From: an uncultured Alphaproteobacteria bacterium
GTDB taxonomy: Bacteria; Pseudomonadota; Alphaproteobacteria; HIMB59; GCA-002718135
Length of the DNA: 64,000 nucleotides
Direction of reading: 5' to 3'
NCBI GenBank assembly: GCA_902602515.1
Contig: CACKRG010000001.1
Location: 186,001 to 250,000 of the forward strand
Below the pieces are notes generated by a model. That model had not been told where the DNA came from and made no database searches. It saw only the letters and a program-made list of their open reading frames with translations. Shown piece after piece: positions 1,597-8,721 of this stretch. The first letter of the stretch is position 1; each line of letters starts with the position of its first letter. The translations under genes and the position numbers were made by a program.

Positions 1597-2601
1597 ATGG
1601 CTTTCATAAATGTATTTCTTAAAACATTGGGTTTTTTAATAGGCTCTCTTACATTTGTTATTATTTTAAGTTTATTAATATCCATTACCTCAAATGAAGA
1701 CAATAAATTTAAAGTTATTGAAGGTGAGCCAGATTCTAAAAATATTATTGCAGAAATATCACTTAATGGTCCAATATTTAACAACTACAACCAGTTTTTA
1801 ACAAGTGATTTTATAAGTTATATTGATCCAAATAAAATTAAAGAGCAATTAAAATTATTAGAAAAACATAATCCAAAAATAGTAATATTTAAAATAAATT
1901 CACCAGGTGGCACAGTGACAGCTACACATAATTTAGATAACATAATTAAAAAATTTAAAATTAAAAATAAATCAGAAATTTATTTTTACTCTGATGAAAT
2001 CTTAACTTCCGGAGCATATTGGGTTGCTACATCTGGAGATAAAATATTTGCAAATTATGGAGCTATAATTGGAAGTATTGGAGCAAATGGACCTAGTTGG
2101 TATTATTATAAAACACCTAGATCGATATCCAAGGGTATTTTTGGACAGAAAATAGAAACCATAGAAGAAATTGAAATTTATAATCAAAGTGCTGGTAGCT
2201 CAAAAGATCTTTATAATCCATTTAGAAAGCCGACAGTTAAAGAACTTAATCATCTTCAAAGTATGGTTCAAGAAATTTATATGAATTTTGTAAATAAAGT
2301 ATCTAGTAGTAGAAAAATTGAAAAAAATTTACTTATTAATGAAATAGGAGCATTAATTTATACAAGCAATCAAGCTAAAGATAATTTTTTAATTGATAAT
2401 ATTGTTGAATATGAAGAACTTGTTAAATTGATATTGAAAGAAAACAATTTTAAAGATTACAAAATTTTGAAAATAGAAGCTCAGTCAAACTTCATAAGCA
2501 AATATATGTCTATGTATTTTAGTACTAACCTAAATAATTTTTGTGAAAAGATAAATATTAGCTTCACTACCATATCTCCTACTTTTGTTGAGAAATGCTA
2601 G
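1597..2601 (+). CDS. S49 family signal peptide peptidase (SppA/SohB-like)
   Basis: N-terminal TM segment; INSPGGTVTATHNL and LTSGAYWVATSGDKIFANYGAIIGSIGA motifs. Confidence 0.85.
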   Translation: MAFINVFLKTLGFLIGSLTFVIILSLLISITSNEDNKFKVIEGEPDSKNIIAEISLNGPIFNNYNQFLTSDFISYIDPNKIKEQLKLLEKHNPKIVIFKINSPGGTVTATHNLDNIIKKFKIKNKSEIYFYSDEILTSGAYWVATSGDKIFANYGAIIGSIGANGPSWYYYKTPRSISKGIFGQKIETIEEIEIYNQSAGSSKDLYNPFRKPTVKELNHLQSMVQEIYMNFVNKVSSSRKIEKNLLINEIGALIYTSNQAKDNFLIDNIVEYEELVKLILKENNFKDYKILKIEAQSNFISKYMSMYFSTNLNNFCEKINISFTTISPTFVEKC

Positions 2602-2604
2602 TTA

Positions 2605-3630
2605 TTAAATAGCTTTTATATCATTTAATTTAACAATTAAATTTTTATAATAATTACTATTACTTAGAATATCCTTGTCTATATACTTTCTAGAAAGTTC
2701 AGAATGATTTCCTACTGGAACAGTGTCAGTTATAAATCTTTTATATTTTAGATTATTAATTTTTGCTAATATATTATATCTATTTTCAAATATTTTTTCG
2801 TGCTCTTTTTTAAATTCAGGTCCTATTTCAAATATTTCAGTTTCTGGTTTACAAAATATTATATTAGAAAGATTAGACCCGTGTGCACCAATTATTTTGT
2901 CAGCTTCAGAGAAAATCTGTATTTGTTGATCAATTGTATATAATTGAGGATTAATTATCTTATATCCTTTAGATCTCAAAATAGGAATAATATCAGCTTC
3001 GTTAACAATTTTTCTATATGAGGAATCTTCTCTTGTTACATAAATTTTTTTATCTTTAGAGTTAAAACTTTTAGGTTTTAAAAATTTTTTTAATATTAAG
3101 TTTGAGTTAGCGATATTAAAGAACTGAGGAAATTGACAATCTGTAAATTTATAAAATCCGTCATCTAAATACACAAATGAAAAATCAATTTTTTTATTTT
3201 TTAAAATATATTTAATAAAGTTTCTAAATTTAACTGATGAATTACGGTGAATTGCAATTTTTATATTATTTTCTTTAATATAAAATATTCTTGGAATGAA
3301 TTGAATTAAATTTGAATAATAATTATTGCCTGCACTTGAACCAAGTATAAATATGTTTTTAAATTCTTTTAATTTTTCAATATTTTCTTTTAGATTGTTA
3401 AAAAAATTATTAGTAAAATAATGTTCAGTATTTTGATAAAAATCTCTTATAAAAAGATTTTTAAATGTTTTAAAATTTTTATCAATTAAAAAAAAGTTAA
3501 AAGTATCTGAATAAAAATCTCCTTTATAAATATTACATTTTAAATTAAAATCATTTATTTTAGAATTTATAAAATTAGTATGTAAATTTTTATCTTTTGA
3601 TATTTTTGATATGGGTATGTTTTGAAGCAT
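2605..3630 (-). CDS. Glycosyltransferase family 61-like protein
   Basis: C-terminal ADKIIGAHGSNLSNIIFCKPETEIFEIGP resembles the GT61/DUF563 motif. Confidence 0.65.
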   Translation of the reverse strand: MLQNIPISKISKDKNLHTNFINSKINDFNLKCNIYKGDFYSDTFNFFLIDKNFKTFKNLFIRDFYQNTEHYFTNNFFNNLKENIEKLKEFKNIFILGSSAGNNYYSNLIQFIPRIFYIKENNIKIAIHRNSSVKFRNFIKYILKNKKIDFSFVYLDDGFYKFTDCQFPQFFNIANSNLILKKFLKPKSFNSKDKKIYVTREDSSYRKIVNEADIIPILRSKGYKIINPQLYTIDQQIQIFSEADKIIGAHGSNLSNIIFCKPETEIFEIGPEFKKEHEKIFENRYNILAKINNLKYKRFITDTVPVGNHSELSRKYIDKDILSNSNYYKNLIVKLNDIKAI

Positions 3631-3800
3631 TTTTTTATAGTTTACACATATATTAAAATTATAAATTAGTTAATCAATTTTGAACTTTAAAATAAATTGT
3701 CTTTAAATTTACTTAATATTGTTTGTTTGTAAAAAATCTTAATATAAAGAATTTTTAATTAAATTCTTTAGTGCTATTTTTTATTTAAAAATCAAAATAA

Positions 3801-3877
3801 TGGCGCGCCCGAGAAGAGTCGAACTCCTAACCTTATGATCCGTAGTCATACGCTCTATCCAATTGAGCTACAGGCGC
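3801..3877 (-). tRNA. tRNA-Arg (anticodon ACG), CCA encoded
   Basis: Reverse complement GCGCCTGTAGCTCAATTGGATAGAGCGTATGACTACGGATCATAAGGTTAGGAGTTCGACTCTTCTCGGGCGCGCCA folds as a cloverleaf. Confidence 0.95.
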
Positions 3878-3936
3878 TTCTTATTTTTCAACCTTTTATC
3901 AACTTACTATTGAACATACAATGTTCATGGTACCAC

Positions 3937-4013
3937 CATGGTACCACCATTTATTTATTTTAACATATTTCAATTAATTTTACACTTATTAGAACTGAAC
4001 AATTTCTTTAGTT
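3937..4013 (+). repeat. Direct repeat copy 1 (partner at 6122-6198)
   Basis: First 33 bp CATGGTACCACCATTTATTTATTTTAACATATT identical in both copies, similarity continuing to the AAC-N10-GTT motif. Confidence 0.85.
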
Positions 4014-4110
4014 AGTGATGGGATAAATTAATAGGTTAAGACAGTGAACCTATTTAAATTTAAATATGAAGAATGTTTAGTAGAGTGTTCACTAAATACT
4101 CTTTGCAATA

Positions 4111-4263
4111 GTGATAAATTTTGCTTTAATTAGAACTTCTCTAGAGCTTAGTGAAGTAGGAATAGGGACTTTAATTTATGCTATTGGAATAGTGTTTTCC
4201 GTTTCAACAGGACTTTTTATTGTTGGTAAAATATATAACTACAATTTTGTAATAATAATTTAA
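4111..4263 (+). CDS. Possible 50-aa small membrane protein or gene remnant
   Basis: GTG-start ORF MINFALIRTSLELSEVGIGTLIYAIGIVFSVSTGLFIVGKIYNYNFVIII*, hydrophobic; not in the supplied ORF track. Confidence 0.25.
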   Translation: MINFALIRTSLELSEVGIGTLIYAIGIVFSVSTGLFIVGKIYNYNFVIII

Positions 4264-4289
4264 TTTTTTTTTGTTCTAAAAGTTATTTA

Positions 4290-6071
4290 ATGAAAAATAT
4301 CTTTTATTTATTAATTATTTTTTTTTCACTAAAATTATATGCTGATGATTATATAATTAATAAACCATATAAATTAGTTCCATCAATTGATGAAAGGTTT
4401 AGTGAAATAAATAATAAAGAAATAATTAAAAGCCTTTGTGTATCTAGAAACAAAAATACAATTTCTATTAATCAATTTTTAAATAAGAAGATTCCAAAAA
4501 ACACAGATGATGAAAATATAAAAGAATGGAATTTTATTCCATTCAGTCTTTTTTCATACATGTCAAAATATTATCAAACTCAAAGTGATTTAGATGCGAA
4601 AAATATTAAAGAAGCAATTTTGCATTTAGCAAAAAATAATTATATGACAAAAACTAAGAATAAAAATGATGTTTACTTTATGAACACGCTTTTGAATACA
4701 AAAGATAATTTAGATATTATTTTATATTCTTTGTCTGTTTTAAAAATTAATAATCAAATTAATAGTAGTGATTTTGATAAAATATTAAAATGGATAGATA
4801 AAGTATATAAGCCCTATAGATCTCATAAAACTATGAATACTAAACAATGTATACATAATGATAAATTCATAGAAAAAAAAGATCTCGGTGGATGTCAAAA
4901 TCATACTTCTTCAGGTATTCAAGTAAAAACTCTTTATTCAATATTAAAAAACAATAATAACGATTTTATTGATGGTTCTAAATATTATAAATTTATAATT
5001 GATGATTTAAAAAAAGATGGAGCATTATGGAAAGAAGCGGTGCGAGGGTCACATTCTTGGAAGTATTATGCTCATAATTTAAATGATATAATTGGAATAG
5101 CTGAAGCGTATTATATTCAAGGTTATGATCTTTATTCCTATAAATCAAAAAAAAATAATAAAAATATTCATGATGCCGTAAAATTCTTTGCTGATGCATT
5201 GTCAGATAAAAATTTAATGTTCAACTATGCTAAAGAATTAATTGGACAAGAGGGTCGCACTCAAAATTGGAAAGATTTAACTTATTATAATCAAGTAATA
5301 AATGGATATGGTAGCCGTATGCTTTGGTTTTATGCTTATGCTTCACGTTTTCCAAATCATGAAAATGTAACAAAACTATCAAAATATTTTCCTTTGTCTT
5401 TTCTAGAAGAAGCAAATAGTCAGCATATGGGATTAAATACTCAATGTTTTTTATCTAAAAAAGGAATAATAAATTCTCAAATTGACATATTTAATAAAAA
5501 TCCTGCTATAAAAATTAATGATATAGAAAATAATAAATATATCCTTTCTATTATTGTTAAAGATGATGAAAAGGCATACCCACGTGGACTCTATATTATT
5601 CAAAAAACTAATAATGTTTTTAAAATAGTTGGTGGAGGAAATAAAAAAACAACTAATAGACAATGGGATAATACAAATAATCCATCTTTCATCGCTTTGG
5701 GTAAAAATAAATTTTATATTTATGCAAATTTACTATTAGAAAGCTCAGAGAGTTCTTTAAGTAGAATAACCAATTTTAATAAAATAATTGATCTAAAGAA
5801 ATTCACCTGGCAATTACAAGAATTTGAGAATTATAATGAAGATGATTATAAACTACTTACCCATATTCTAAGATTAAGTGGAGAAAAAGTAAAATCAAAG
5901 GATAAATTACCTTCAAATTTAGACAAAAATTTATATTTTGGTAAAATAAATCAAAATAATAAAGATTATCTTTTCTTAGTTTTTCCTTTTAAAAATAATT
6001 GGTGTAATAAAAAAACTGGCAAGTTAGATGGTCAATGGAAGATTGTTAAAAAAGAGATATGTAGCTTTTAA
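4290..6071 (+). CDS. Secreted alginate-lyase-superfamily-like protein
   Basis: Signal peptide; helical region with DGALWKEAVRGSHSWKYYAHNLNDIIGIAEAYYIQGYDLY resembling the alginate lyase (alpha/alpha toroid) core. Confidence 0.55.
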   Translation: MKNIFYLLIIFFSLKLYADDYIINKPYKLVPSIDERFSEINNKEIIKSLCVSRNKNTISINQFLNKKIPKNTDDENIKEWNFIPFSLFSYMSKYYQTQSDLDAKNIKEAILHLAKNNYMTKTKNKNDVYFMNTLLNTKDNLDIILYSLSVLKINNQINSSDFDKILKWIDKVYKPYRSHKTMNTKQCIHNDKFIEKKDLGGCQNHTSSGIQVKTLYSILKNNNNDFIDGSKYYKFIIDDLKKDGALWKEAVRGSHSWKYYAHNLNDIIGIAEAYYIQGYDLYSYKSKKNNKNIHDAVKFFADALSDKNLMFNYAKELIGQEGRTQNWKDLTYYNQVINGYGSRMLWFYAYASRFPNHENVTKLSKYFPLSFLEEANSQHMGLNTQCFLSKKGIINSQIDIFNKNPAIKINDIENNKYILSIIVKDDEKAYPRGLYIIQKTNNVFKIVGGGNKKTTNRQWDNTNNPSFIALGKNKFYIYANLLLESSESSLSRITNFNKIIDLKKFTWQLQEFENYNEDDYKLLTHILRLSGEKVKSKDKLPSNLDKNLYFGKINQNNKDYLFLVFPFKNNWCNKKTGKLDGQWKIVKKEICSF

Positions 6072-6121
6072 ATATGTTGTTCAACTATTTTATTTGTTAG
6101 TTTCATAATACGTCCCTATTG

Positions 6122-6198
6122 CATGGTACCACCATTTATTTATTTTAACATATTCTAGATGGTTTTACACTGATTAGAACTAAACAATCTCCTTAGTT
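6122..6198 (+). repeat. Direct repeat copy 2 (partner at 3937-4013)
   Basis: CATGGTACCACCATTTATTTATTTTAACATATT...TTTTACACTGATTAGAACTAAACAATCTCCTTAGTT. Confidence 0.85.
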
Positions 6199-6208
6199 GG
6201 TTTTAGAA

Positions 6209-7252
6209 CTAAAAAGTAACAGCATATATTTGAAAAAATATACCGCACATTATAGCGCCTCCTAAACCAAAAAATAAATATGCCGTAAAAGTTGCTCTAT
6301 TGACCAGTGACCAAACAGCAGTCATAGCTGGTATACTAGAAATAGCACCTCCCACAAGAAAGGCTAATGCCCCACCTGCACTTAATCCTTGTTCTAGCAA
6401 TCCTGATACTACAGCGGGAGCTGCATAGGAATTCAGGTAGGCGGGAACACCGATGAATGCTCCGACAACAATAGAAAATAATCCATCTCCTCCCACGATG
6501 CTTCCGATTAGTTGTGTGGGAATATAAATAATCATGATTGCTTCAAGCAGATAGGCTAGTGTTAACCATTTAAGTAGAAATATTCCATTTGAGGAAAACT
6601 CAGACCAGAAAAATTGCATGCGTTGTTTGTCTTGCCAAAACTTCCAAATAGTTTTGTTCGTAAAAGATTTTACCGAACAGCAACTTTGTGCATTATTCAT
6701 TACTTTTAATGGAGAGCTAAATAATCCCATTTTTGAAAATATAAAAATACCAAAACCTCCTAATAAACCTAGAAAGAGAGCTGAGAGAGTTTTGGCTATT
6801 GCGAATTCCCAGCCAAGCGCAGAGGCAGTGATTAATAATGCAGGGGGGTCTATTAAAGGAGATGACAACCAAAATGCCATAACCGCTGAGATAGGTACAC
6901 CTAATGCTAACATACTGGCAATAAATGGAATAACTTCACAAGAACAAAAAGGGGCAAGCCCGCCAACTATAGTGGCCAAAAAAATCATATTAATTTCTCT
7001 TCCTTGAAACGATTTGGAAATAATACGTTCAGCACCCGATGCTTTAAGAGAAGCAATTAATAAAATAGCAATCAAGATAAAAGGAATAGTTCCCATTAGA
7101 GCAGACAATGCTTTGGTGATGATGGACGGCAAATTACTAATATCCATGATGCCAATAATCAAAACAATAGATAAGGTAATCAACCAGACTGATCTGAATT
7201 TTTTATAATTTGAATGAAAAAAATTAGCTGAGATGAAGTTTGCGTAGTTCAT
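6209..7252 (-). CDS. Permease (DUF318/ArsP-like metal(loid) efflux)
   Basis: Multi-TM protein with GGLAPFCSCEVIPF and SSPLIDPPALLIT motifs; next to an ArsR regulator. Confidence 0.8.
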   Translation of the reverse strand: MNYANFISANFFHSNYKKFRSVWLITLSIVLIIGIMDISNLPSIITKALSALMGTIPFILIAILLIASLKASGAERIISKSFQGREINMIFLATIVGGLAPFCSCEVIPFIASMLALGVPISAVMAFWLSSPLIDPPALLITASALGWEFAIAKTLSALFLGLLGGFGIFIFSKMGLFSSPLKVMNNAQSCCSVKSFTNKTIWKFWQDKQRMQFFWSEFSSNGIFLLKWLTLAYLLEAIMIIYIPTQLIGSIVGGDGLFSIVVGAFIGVPAYLNSYAAPAVVSGLLEQGLSAGGALAFLVGGAISSIPAMTAVWSLVNRATFTAYLFFGLGGAIMCGIFFQIYAVTF

Positions 7253-7566
7253 GCAGTTTTTCTTTTTGGAGTTTGTTTTTCATTACGACAACATTCCTTT
7301 AATACATAGCTTGCAAGTAATTCTGCTTGATGAAAATTTGCGTAAGTAAAAATGGATCGTCCTTTTTTTTCTTGATGGATGAGTTCAGCATTCTCCAAAA
7401 ATCGTAGATGATGAGCAAGCGTGGAAAGAGGAATATCTAGCTGCTCTTGTATTTCTCCAACCGATAATCCGGTGTTCCCAGCTTTTACGAGTTCTAGAAA
7501 AACAGTTAAACGTGGAGTGGAACCAATAGCTTTAAATCCCTTAGCTATTAAATCAATTTTTTTCAT
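7249..7566 (-). CDS. ArsR-family winged-helix repressor
   Basis: HTH region LSVGEIQEQLDIPLSTLAHHLRFLENAELIHQEKKGRSIFTYA; C-terminal vicinal Cys pair KECCRNE; overlaps the permease start. Confidence 0.88.
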   Translation of the reverse strand: MKKIDLIAKGFKAIGSTPRLTVFLELVKAGNTGLSVGEIQEQLDIPLSTLAHHLRFLENAELIHQEKKGRSIFTYANFHQAELLASYVLKECCRNEKQTPKRKTA

Positions 7567-7570
7567 AATG

Positions 7571-7594
7571 ATATAACTAGTAATATAGTTATAT
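7571..7594. promoter_or_regulatory. Operator-like perfect inverted repeat upstream of arsR
   Basis: ATATAACTA-GTAATA-TAGTTATAT, 9-bp perfect arms, 5 nt from the arsR start. Confidence 0.75.
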
Positions 7595-7644
7595 TAAAAT
7601 GTCAATTATACGTGTATGAAATCTTTTGGATAATCATATCCCTT

Positions 7645-7660
7645 AACAATCTCCGTGGTT
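7645..7660 (+). repeat. AAC-N10-GTT motif copy 3
   Basis: AACAATCTCCGTGGTT, 34 nt upstream of ATG 7679. Confidence 0.6.
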
Positions 7661-7678
7661 AGTGGTAATAATTCAACT

Positions 7679-8260
7679 ATGACTACTTATGTTGTGTGTG
7701 ACATAGAAGCAGACGGACCTATTCCTGGACCACATTCTATGATAAGCCTTGGTGCTGTAGCCGTTAATAAAGCAGGAAAAAAATTTGGAGAATGTGAAAT
7801 TAATTTCTTGCCACTAAAAAATGCCAAACCTCACCCCGCTACTATGCATTGGTTTACAACAGAAGCGCCAGAAGCTTTAAAACATACTCAACACCATCAA
7901 GTCTCACCCAAAGAAGGAATGAATAAATTTGGTGATTGGCTTCTTACGTTACCAACCCCACGAATTATGGCTGCTCATCCAGCTCCATTAGATTTTATGT
8001 GGATCAATTGGTATATTCAAACTTTTCTTGTAGAACGATTAGAAAAAATTCCTTTCTCTATGCCTTTTTTTGATAAGAATGGACAAGCAGCCTTTGATAT
8101 CAAATCCTATGCTGCTGCTGTGCTGCAAAAAGATTATAAAGACATAGGTAGAGATGATTACTCTCTAGAATTGCATGATAATACAAAACATACGCATAAA
8201 GCCATAGATGATGCCAGAGAATATGCAAAATTATTAATTAAACTGCTGAATAAAAAATAA
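7679..8260 (+). CDS. DEDDh-type 3'-5' exonuclease / RNase T-like
   Basis: MTTYVVCDIEADGPIPGPHSMISLGAVAV ... HKAIDDAREYAKLL; the track start at 7655 is GTG, ATG at 7679 fits the family better. Confidence 0.8.
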   Translation: MTTYVVCDIEADGPIPGPHSMISLGAVAVNKAGKKFGECEINFLPLKNAKPHPATMHWFTTEAPEALKHTQHHQVSPKEGMNKFGDWLLTLPTPRIMAAHPAPLDFMWINWYIQTFLVERLEKIPFSMPFFDKNGQAAFDIKSYAAAVLQKDYKDIGRDDYSLELHDNTKHTHKAIDDAREYAKLLIKLLNKK

Positions 8261-8262
8261 TA

Positions 8263-8278
8263 AACAATCTCATTGGTT
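8263..8278 (+). repeat. AAC-N10-GTT motif copy 4
   Basis: AACAATCTCATTGGTT, 34 nt upstream of ATG 8297. Confidence 0.6.
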
Positions 8279-8296
8279 GGTGGTAAGATAATCGGG

Positions 8297-8389
8297 ATGA
8301 AAAAACTTTTAGGGCTTGTGGGTATATGTTTATTAATTTGTAGTTTTAGTTTTGCTAAAGAAATAAATGTTAAAAAGGAGGAAGAATGA
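8297..8389 (+). CDS. 30-aa signal-peptide-like small ORF
   Basis: MKKLLGLVGICLLICSFSFAKEINVKKEEE*, ATGA overlap with the next gene. Confidence 0.45.
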   Translation: MKKLLGLVGICLLICSFSFAKEINVKKEEE

Positions 8390-8721
8390 ATCTAGGAGAA
8401 CAGTATAAAAAAGCTTGGTTTGATTATAAAGATAATATTGATCGTGATACTTTACCAGACTTACTAGATGATAAATTTGAATGGAGATCACTGACAAAAG
8501 CTTTTAATGACAAAACAATTGAGTCTAAAGAAGATACATTAGAAACATTAAAAGGGGTAGATACAATAACAACTCCCGAAGTACATTATTCGTCTGATGA
8601 AATGTTAGTTATGAGTGTAGTGCATGAATCGGATGGTGGTAAAATGGTTGTTTTAGCTTTCGTAACTTTTAAAGATGGTAAAGCTATAGAAATGATTTCT
8701 GCAAAAGGTGATCCAGCATAA
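8386..8721 (+). CDS. NTF2/SnoaL-like small protein
   Basis: 111 aa, short alpha+beta protein ending in a strand-rich region; strong AAAAAGGAGGAAGA RBS. Confidence 0.5.
   Translation: MNLGEQYKKAWFDYKDNIDRDTLPDLLDDKFEWRSLTKAFNDKTIESKEDTLETLKGVDTITTPEVHYSSDEMLVMSVVHESDGGKMVVLAFVTFKDGKAIEMISAKGDPA

What the first reader, a model, noticed from the sequence alone, without database searches (positions are those of the whole stretch)
3998..8278. Four copies of AAC-AATYTCNTTR-GTT separating unrelated accessory genes
16-bp sites with fixed AAC-N10-GTT geometry: 3998-4013 AACAATTTCTTTAGTT, 6183-6198 AACAATCTCCTTAGTT, 7645-7660 AACAATCTCCGTGGTT, 8263-8278 AACAATCTCATTGGTT, often followed by RGTGGTAA. 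They lie at the boundaries between the lyase gene, the permease/arsR pair, the exonuclease and the small-ORF/NTF2 pair, giving a cassette-like layout. Copies 1 and 2 have short inverted arms (AACTRA...TTAGTT). They could be recombination cores, shared 5' leaders, or remnants of an unrecognised element.
Basis: partly seen in the sequence, partly recalled or inferred. Interest (0 to 1): 0.72.

Follow-up and report, generated by a model that had tools for sequence, protein, structure and literature searches.

The report
Shared promoter-like joints between swappable genes
In one genus of open-ocean bacteria, small accessory genes carried on mobile islands are joined at a shared, roughly 35-base start signal that looks like a promoter, and related strains carry different genes on either side of exactly that signal.

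Summary
The four sites are real, exactly where stated, and far from chance. The exact 16-mer occurs only four times in the 1.43-Mb genome, all here. Its 19-base form occurs in 20 of 73 genomes of the genus, in none of 48 sister-family genomes, and never for the reversed control. Breakpoints do fall at the motif: among 99 site contexts, 45 left flanks pair with 57 right flanks in 70 combinations, and the switch lies inside the site. Sites occur on and around tRNA/tmRNA-integrated, satellite-like elements; the window array looks like two decayed tRNA-Arg elements.

The full module reads as a promoter: TTAACA-N17-TAGGAT with TG before it, and the start codon at +35, where transcription should begin. 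Best reading: a mobile, leaderless-type promoter module heading cargo genes (many secreted or MORN-repeat) that doubles as the joint where cargo is exchanged. S3 and S4 look intact; S1 and S2 are decayed.

Two facts still favour a recombination core: an antisense permease/arsR cassette that moved with one edge at the site, and half-sites at non-homologous junctions. No dedicated recombinase was found; no attC-like fold was found. Promoter activity, leaderless transcripts and the exchange mechanism are inferred.

The parts
3998..4013 (+). Site S1 (AACAATTTCTTTAGTT), decayed copy: -35 TGAACA, -10 TGGGAT, no ATG at +35
   Evidence: the identical copy in L065
6183..6198 (+). Site S2 (AACAATCTCCTTAGTT), left edge of the antisense permease/arsR cassette; TG and -10 not conserved
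   Evidence: the near-identical copy in L059
7645..7660 (+). Site S3 (AACAATCTCCGTGGTT), intact module: TTAACA at 7643-7648, -10 region TAATAAT at 7666-7672, ATG of the exonuclease at 7679 (+35)
8263..8278 (+). Site S4 (AACAATCTCATTGGTT), intact module: TAAACA at 8261-8266, TG and TAAGAT at 8284-8289, ATG at 8297 (+35)
3937..4016 (+). Left end of the first tRNA-Arg element: GGTACCACC arm repeats plus leader, running into S1
   Evidence: direct repeat D1, 86% identical to 6122-6201; same leader upstream of tRNA-Arg in relatives
6122..6201 (+). Left end of a second tRNA-Arg element, joined at CATGGTACCACC to the right end of the first, running into S2
3801..3877 (-). tRNA-Arg (ACG), attachment gene of these elements
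4290..6071 (+). Cargo: alginate-lyase-like protein, 593 aa (PF05426)
6209..7252 (-). Cargo: ArsP_1-type permease (PF03773), antisense to the sites
7249..7566 (-). Cargo: ArsR-type regulator (HTH_20/HTH_5)
7679..8260 (+). Cargo: DEDDh-type exonuclease (PF00929), start codon at +35 of S3
8297..8389 (+). 30-codon ORF with signal-peptide-like sequence, start codon at +35 of S4; remnant or leader ahead of the 111-aa gene
8386..8721 (+).

Best explanation
The site is the conserved core of a mobile 5' control module that heads cargo genes on satellite-like, tRNA/tmRNA-integrating elements of this genus. Read forwards, TTAACA is a -35 hexamer; 17 bases later TAGGAT, usually preceded by TG-N, is an extended -10; and the cargo's ATG sits at +35, about where RNA polymerase should start, so the transcript would be leaderless. 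Because most cargo units begin with nearly the same 22-35 bases, the module also serves as a short-homology joint: recombination inside it swaps what lies downstream (new cargo behind the same element end) or upstream (the same cargo on another element). The window array is what is left of two tandem tRNA-Arg elements without their integrase. Shown by sequence: location, genus restriction, flank switching, promoter geometry and fixed start codon. Inferred: promoter activity, leaderless translation, homology-driven exchange.
For: Flanks switch inside the site: 45 left x 57 right groups in 70 combinations; homology ends and starts cluster at the site in a test that does not require a site in the partner (69 of 177 and 59 of 151). 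Of 57 distinct right flanks, 50 match the -35, 48 TAnnnT, 50 TG, all in fixed register; the score is 10.1 of 14 in register and at most 6.1 at other offsets. ATG lies at +33..+37 in 52 of 107 sites, 36 of them exactly +35, against 76 of 2000 random positions for +32..+37. Cargo is mostly co-directional and rich in secreted or membrane-like proteins (21 of 31 against 219 of 849). Adjacent sites share orientation 27 to 1. Exchange at another short repeat (CATGGTACCACC) is seen in the same array. SD motifs are rare here (91 of 849).
Against: The 17-bp spacer, above all C7, C10 and GTT at 14-16, is more conserved than a sigma-70 promoter needs. The permease/arsR cassette lies antisense and lacks the -10, yet moved with its left edge at the site. 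c103 at the xer locus also lacks the TG/-10. Several junctions inside the site join to DNA with no similar sequence, which homology alone would not explain. No transcription data.
Confidence: 0.58

Rival explanations
1. The AAC-N10-GTT dyad is the core of a site-specific recombination system. An element-encoded or trans-acting tyrosine recombinase exchanges cassettes at it, integron-like in effect, and the start-codon module is simply the usual beginning of a cassette.
For: Fixed AAC-N10-GTT geometry with a variable spacer. Permease/arsR moved without a promoter at the site. Half-sites at junctions with unrelated DNA. AACAATC at the exonuclease 3' end in all eleven copies inspected. Sites lie on or near integrase-bearing elements, once directly behind an integrase pseudogene.
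Against: No recombinase tracks with the sites: resolvases in 2 of 101 genomes, and most site-bearing genomes show only the Xer-like protein, although these genomes are incomplete. The tight +35 start codon and promoter hexamers need another reason. The spacer varies even among sites with the same right flank. No attC-like fold. No clean excision of a whole cassette between two sites was documented.
Confidence: 0.2
2. The dyad is chiefly an operator: a regulator of the satellites or of a helper phage binds AAC-N10-GTT inside the promoter and switches cargo on or off, and exchange at the site is a by-product.
For: The spacer is conserved beyond promoter needs. The L078 element encodes an HTH protein resembling excisionase/regulator families.
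Against: No regulator binding can be tested here. Decayed and antisense copies persist without an obvious regulated gene. The left and right triplets are not part of a longer inverted repeat.
Confidence: 0.15
3. The four copies are a chance coincidence in AT-rich DNA.
For: With 2 mismatches allowed, window counts are not exceptional (7 found, 3.6 expected).
Against: The exact pattern occurs only here in the genome, recurs at many loci of the genus, and is absent from reversed controls and the sister family.
Confidence: 0.01

Closest known systems
Start-Associated Sequences (SAS/ESAS) of Cluster K mycobacteriophages (PMC3203893)
   Same: Short conserved sequences repeated immediately upstream of start codons of unrelated genes, nearly all in one orientation, some with an imperfect inverted repeat, confined to one group of mobile genomes.
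   Different: Different consensus (GGGATAGGAGCCC, with pairing potential to 16S rRNA); thought to act in translation initiation; found in phage genomes rather than integrated cassettes; not described there as exchange breakpoints.
Conserved boundary sequences of lambdoid phages (proposal summarised in PMC3029335)
   Same: Short conserved sequence at module boundaries at which homologous recombination could swap genes.
   Different: Here the boundary has promoter geometry with a fixed start codon, and sits in satellite-like elements of a marine alphaproteobacterium.
Cargo hotspots of P4-like satellites (PMC9122126)
   Same: Small satellite elements with an integrase, a primase-type protein and a 1-5 kb slot of high gene turnover.
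   Different: No shared joint sequence is described for those hotspots in the passages read; the cargo here is mostly secreted or MORN-repeat rather than known defence systems.
Integron gene cassettes and attC sites
   Same: Mostly single-gene cassettes in one orientation, separated by recurring sites containing AAC and GTT triplets.
   Different: No folded attC, no GTTRRRY box, and no integrase tied to the sites.
Tycheposons (as described in PMC10872708)
   Same: Cargo-bearing, tyrosine-recombinase, tRNA-bounded islands in streamlined aquatic bacteria.
   Different: The elements here go down to about 1-10 kb and often lack the recombinase; the joint sequence is not mentioned in the paper read.

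Membership tests
Integron attC site | Single strand folds into a long imperfect hairpin | tested here: not met
   Three site versions fold about as well as shuffles (z 0.79, 0.94, -0.33)
Integron attC site | R' box GTTRRRY pairing with R'' box RYYYAAC | tested here: not met
   Right box is GTTRGTG; AAC and GTT are only 10 bases apart
Integron attC site | Cassette-integrating IntI at one end of the array | tested here: inconclusive
   Integrases next to arrays sit at tRNA cores, and most site-bearing genomes show only the Xer-like protein; genomes are incomplete
Sigma-70 extended -10 promoter | -35 and -10 hexamers at 16-18 bp spacing, with TG before the -10 | tested here: met
   50, 48 and 50 of 57 distinct right flanks, in fixed register
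Sigma-70 extended -10 promoter | Drives transcription in the cell | not testable with these tools
   No RNA data
Leaderless gene start | Start codon at the transcription start | tested here: inconclusive
   ATG at +35, 8 bases after the -10, in 36 of 107 sites and at +33..+37 in 52; the RNA 5' end itself is unknown
Start-Associated Sequence (SAS) | Consensus GGGATAGGAGCCC before start codons of Cluster K phages | tested here: not met
   Consensus differs (against PMC3203893); only the placement is alike
Phage satellite / tycheposon-like element (host of the sites) | Tyrosine integrase plus replication gene between direct repeats of a tRNA gene | tested here: met
   L078: tRNA-Leu copies at 6407 and 15953, integrase, DUF5906/VapE-like primase-type protein. 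Met for this element, not for the window array
Phage satellite / tycheposon-like element (host of the sites) | Mobilised or packaged by a helper phage | not testable with these tools
   No capsid or packaging data; no viral contig carries the motif

The most novel reading that the evidence does not exclude
A genus-specific cassette system without attC folding: a tyrosine recombinase of these satellite elements acts on AAC-N10-GTT sites that each carry their own leaderless promoter, so that any captured cargo gene is expressed at once and arrays build up at tRNA hotspots.
Probability: 0.18. Interest if true: 0.82.

Novelty: new variant of a known kind. Interest (0 to 1): 0.55.

Why it matters
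Open-ocean alphaproteobacteria with streamlined genomes gain and lose accessory genes, but how cargo is swapped between small mobile elements, and switched on after arrival, is unclear. A single recognisable joint marking the start of cargo units at several chromosomal hotspots gives a handle for listing that cargo, and for testing directly whether a promoter can act as the exchange point.

Tried and rejected
Rfam scan of the window: only two tRNAs. Integron attC: rejected by folding and box sequence. tRNA-derived core: alignments to the 29 tRNA loci were no better than shuffles; a CCAAGG-N10-GGGTTC resemblance to tRNA-Gly, noticed in L075, was judged coincidental. Xer/dif-like site: judged by eye against the dif consensus from memory, no resemblance, not formally tested. 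Serine resolvases: 2 of 101 genomes. Viral contigs: no match. The match in a Parcubacteria record (L112) scores only 19 bits and was taken as chance. PADLOC on ten cargo proteins: only the exonuclease matches, plus one weak hit. Left-half-only sites were not used as proof, because they were found by searching for left halves; the test free of that bias is, whose counts are not corrected for shared ancestry.
Full report
OBSERVATION. In the whole 1.43-Mb genome the pattern AACAATYTCNNTRGTT occurs only at these four places, all on the + strand, and its reversed control never. The 19-base version AACAATYTCNNTRGTTRGT occurs in 20 of 73 same-genus genomes (32 places), in 0 of 48 sister-family genomes and never reversed. 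A sequence-only covariance model finds matches in 75 of 101 same-genus genomes at E 0.1, weak hits included, and, among 386 genomes spread over the class, at E 0.001 only in this genome. Records behind the matches are single-cell genomes named AG-..., 'uncultured Alphaproteobacteria'. The lineage is probably order HIMB59, family GCA-002718135; this is inferred from such names in PMC10734472 and was not tested.

WHERE THE SITES ARE. They occur at tRNA-Arg/tRNA-Gln, tRNA-Gly, tRNA-Leu, tRNA-Ser and tmRNA loci, at a locus upstream of the xer-like gene, and at a non-tRNA hotspot 'D'. Some of the elements are intact: in L078 a 9.5-kb element has tRNA-Leu sequence at both ends, a 332-aa integrase (phrog_1) and a primase-type protein (DUF5906/VapE-like). 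At locus D the exonuclease sits in a 1152-bp insertion flanked by a 54-bp repeat, and the empty site is seen in more than ten genomes. At tRNA-Arg, relatives show the tRNA 5' half repeated at the far end, with GGTACCACC arms inside both ends, and G133 keeps an integrase there. The window lacks the integrase and the far core: it reads as two such elements in tandem, joined at a CATGGTACCACC repeat near 6126-6135, with the lyase in the first and permease/arsR, exonuclease and the 111-aa gene in the second. Sites lie on the strand opposite to the integrase in most integrase-bearing loci; the tmRNA locus of G124 is an exception.

FLANK SWITCHING. From 99 unique contexts I formed 45 left-flank and 57 right-flank groups, which occur in 70 combinations; nine left groups have two or more partners (up to 8) and seven right groups have two or more (up to 7). 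Pairs with the same left flank are about 90% identical up to about +19 and at background by about +31; pairs with the same right flank are at background up to about -12 and near 100% from -1. Starting from homology 200-250 bp away and not requiring a site in the partner, 69 of 177 left homologies end in 0..+39 and 59 of 151 right homologies begin in -20..-1. These counts are not corrected for shared ancestry. Examples: the tRNA-Arg leader is followed in different genomes by the lyase, permease/arsR, the 111-aa gene and others, and the exonuclease is preceded by several unrelated flanks. At the xer locus the left site is followed by a conserved 2.1-kb block in most genomes and by a remnant of another cassette in G004.

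WHAT THE MODULE LOOKS LIKE. Taking A of AAC as +1, the consensus over 57 distinct right flanks is CTTAACAATCTCCTTNGTTGGTGGTAGGATAAT, with ATG at +35. TTAACA at -1..+4, 17 bases, then TAGGAT at +22..+27 with TG at +19/+20 is a standard extended -10 promoter layout: 50, 48 and 50 of 57 flanks fit the -35, the -10 and the TG, and the match score peaks only in register (10.1 of 14; other slides at most 6.1). The first usable ATG is at +33..+37 in 52 of 107 sites, 36 at exactly +35; random positions give 76 of 2000 for +32..+37. From established promoter geometry (transcription begins 7-8 bases after the -10), the start would fall at +34/+35, on the ATG, which would explain the fixed distance if the mRNA is leaderless; phage lambda cI from PRM is the textbook case (own knowledge). 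Shine-Dalgarno-like motifs precede only 91 of 849 ORFs here. The AAC-N10-GTT geometry is then AAC of the -35 and GTT of the conserved spacer. That spacer is more conserved than sigma-70 alone would need, so a bound regulator or a second function there is likely.

STATE OF THE FOUR COPIES. S3 and S4 have hexamers and ATG in place. S1 has decayed hexamers and no ATG at +35. S2 lost the TG and -10 and precedes an antisense cassette. The generic promoter scan lists S3 but not the other copies, as expected for a -10 with GG in the middle; that scan is no proof either way.

WHAT STILL SPEAKS FOR A RECOMBINATION CORE. The permease/arsR cassette has no promoter at the site, yet appears behind two unrelated left flanks with the switch at the site; its other edge in G124 is not at a site. 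Junctions with unrelated DNA end inside the site: two positions in integrase genes, the tail of c103 and the region after it at the xer locus, and c143 in G003. The exonuclease 3' flank contains AACAATC or a near copy in every copy inspected, followed either by a site or by other sequence. These fit a cutting activity at the site, or microhomology joining. No recombinase tracks with the sites.

CARGO. 21 of 31 cargo ORFs starting at +29..+38 have secreted or membrane-like N-termini, against 219 of 849 background ORFs. Seven of about twenty tested cargo proteins match MORN repeats, one of them below the Pfam cut-off. The exonuclease also matches a PADLOC effector model. Function of the cargo was not tested.

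VERDICT. The best reading is a promoter-like cargo-start module that doubles as an exchange joint; a dedicated recombination system is the main rival. The nearest described phenomena are Start-Associated Sequences of Cluster K phages (placement; PMC3203893), lambdoid boundary sequences (role in exchange; PMC3029335) and satellite cargo hotspots (context; PMC9122126). No description of this sequence family was met in the six paper searches made; that is not an exhaustive literature search.

Noticed in passing
L260 (G034:C5) 1605-5900; also L209 and L215 (G036), L208 (G006): Tandem arrays of 0.7-1.4 kb units, each delimited by an identical or near-identical 47-bp tRNA-Arg 3' half: integrase-less mini-elements stacked at one tRNA. 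PMC10872708 describes a comparable island with repeats of the last 20 bases of tRNA-Lys.
   Followed up: partly
L079 8402-9607 and the empty or differently filled sites in G017, G019, G007, G037 and others: A non-tRNA insertion hotspot with a 54-bp direct repeat that holds either nothing, a 1.15-kb exonuclease element, or unrelated inserts of about 2.5-8 kb.
   Followed up: partly
L057 10517-11446, L072, L257, L259, L264, L266, L213: Secreted or membrane-like MORN-repeat proteins recur as cargo behind these sites. Their function is unknown.
   Followed up: no
L085 8786-11127 (G072): A second tyrosine recombinase gene lies directly upstream of the xer-like gene, whereas most genomes of the genus show a single xer-like gene.
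   Followed up: no
L288, L286, L298, L299, L289, L283, L284: A second site type, CAACATTCCTCGTGGTTGGTGG, keeps AAC-N10-GTT and the start-codon module with a different spacer; several copies are in G036.
   Followed up: partly
L083 9099-10278 and L075 12158-12306: The tRNA-Gly anticodon stem (CAACCTTGCCAAGGTTG) is part of an attachment core; in L075 such a core is joined directly to the region that elsewhere lies just upstream of a site.
   Followed up: partly
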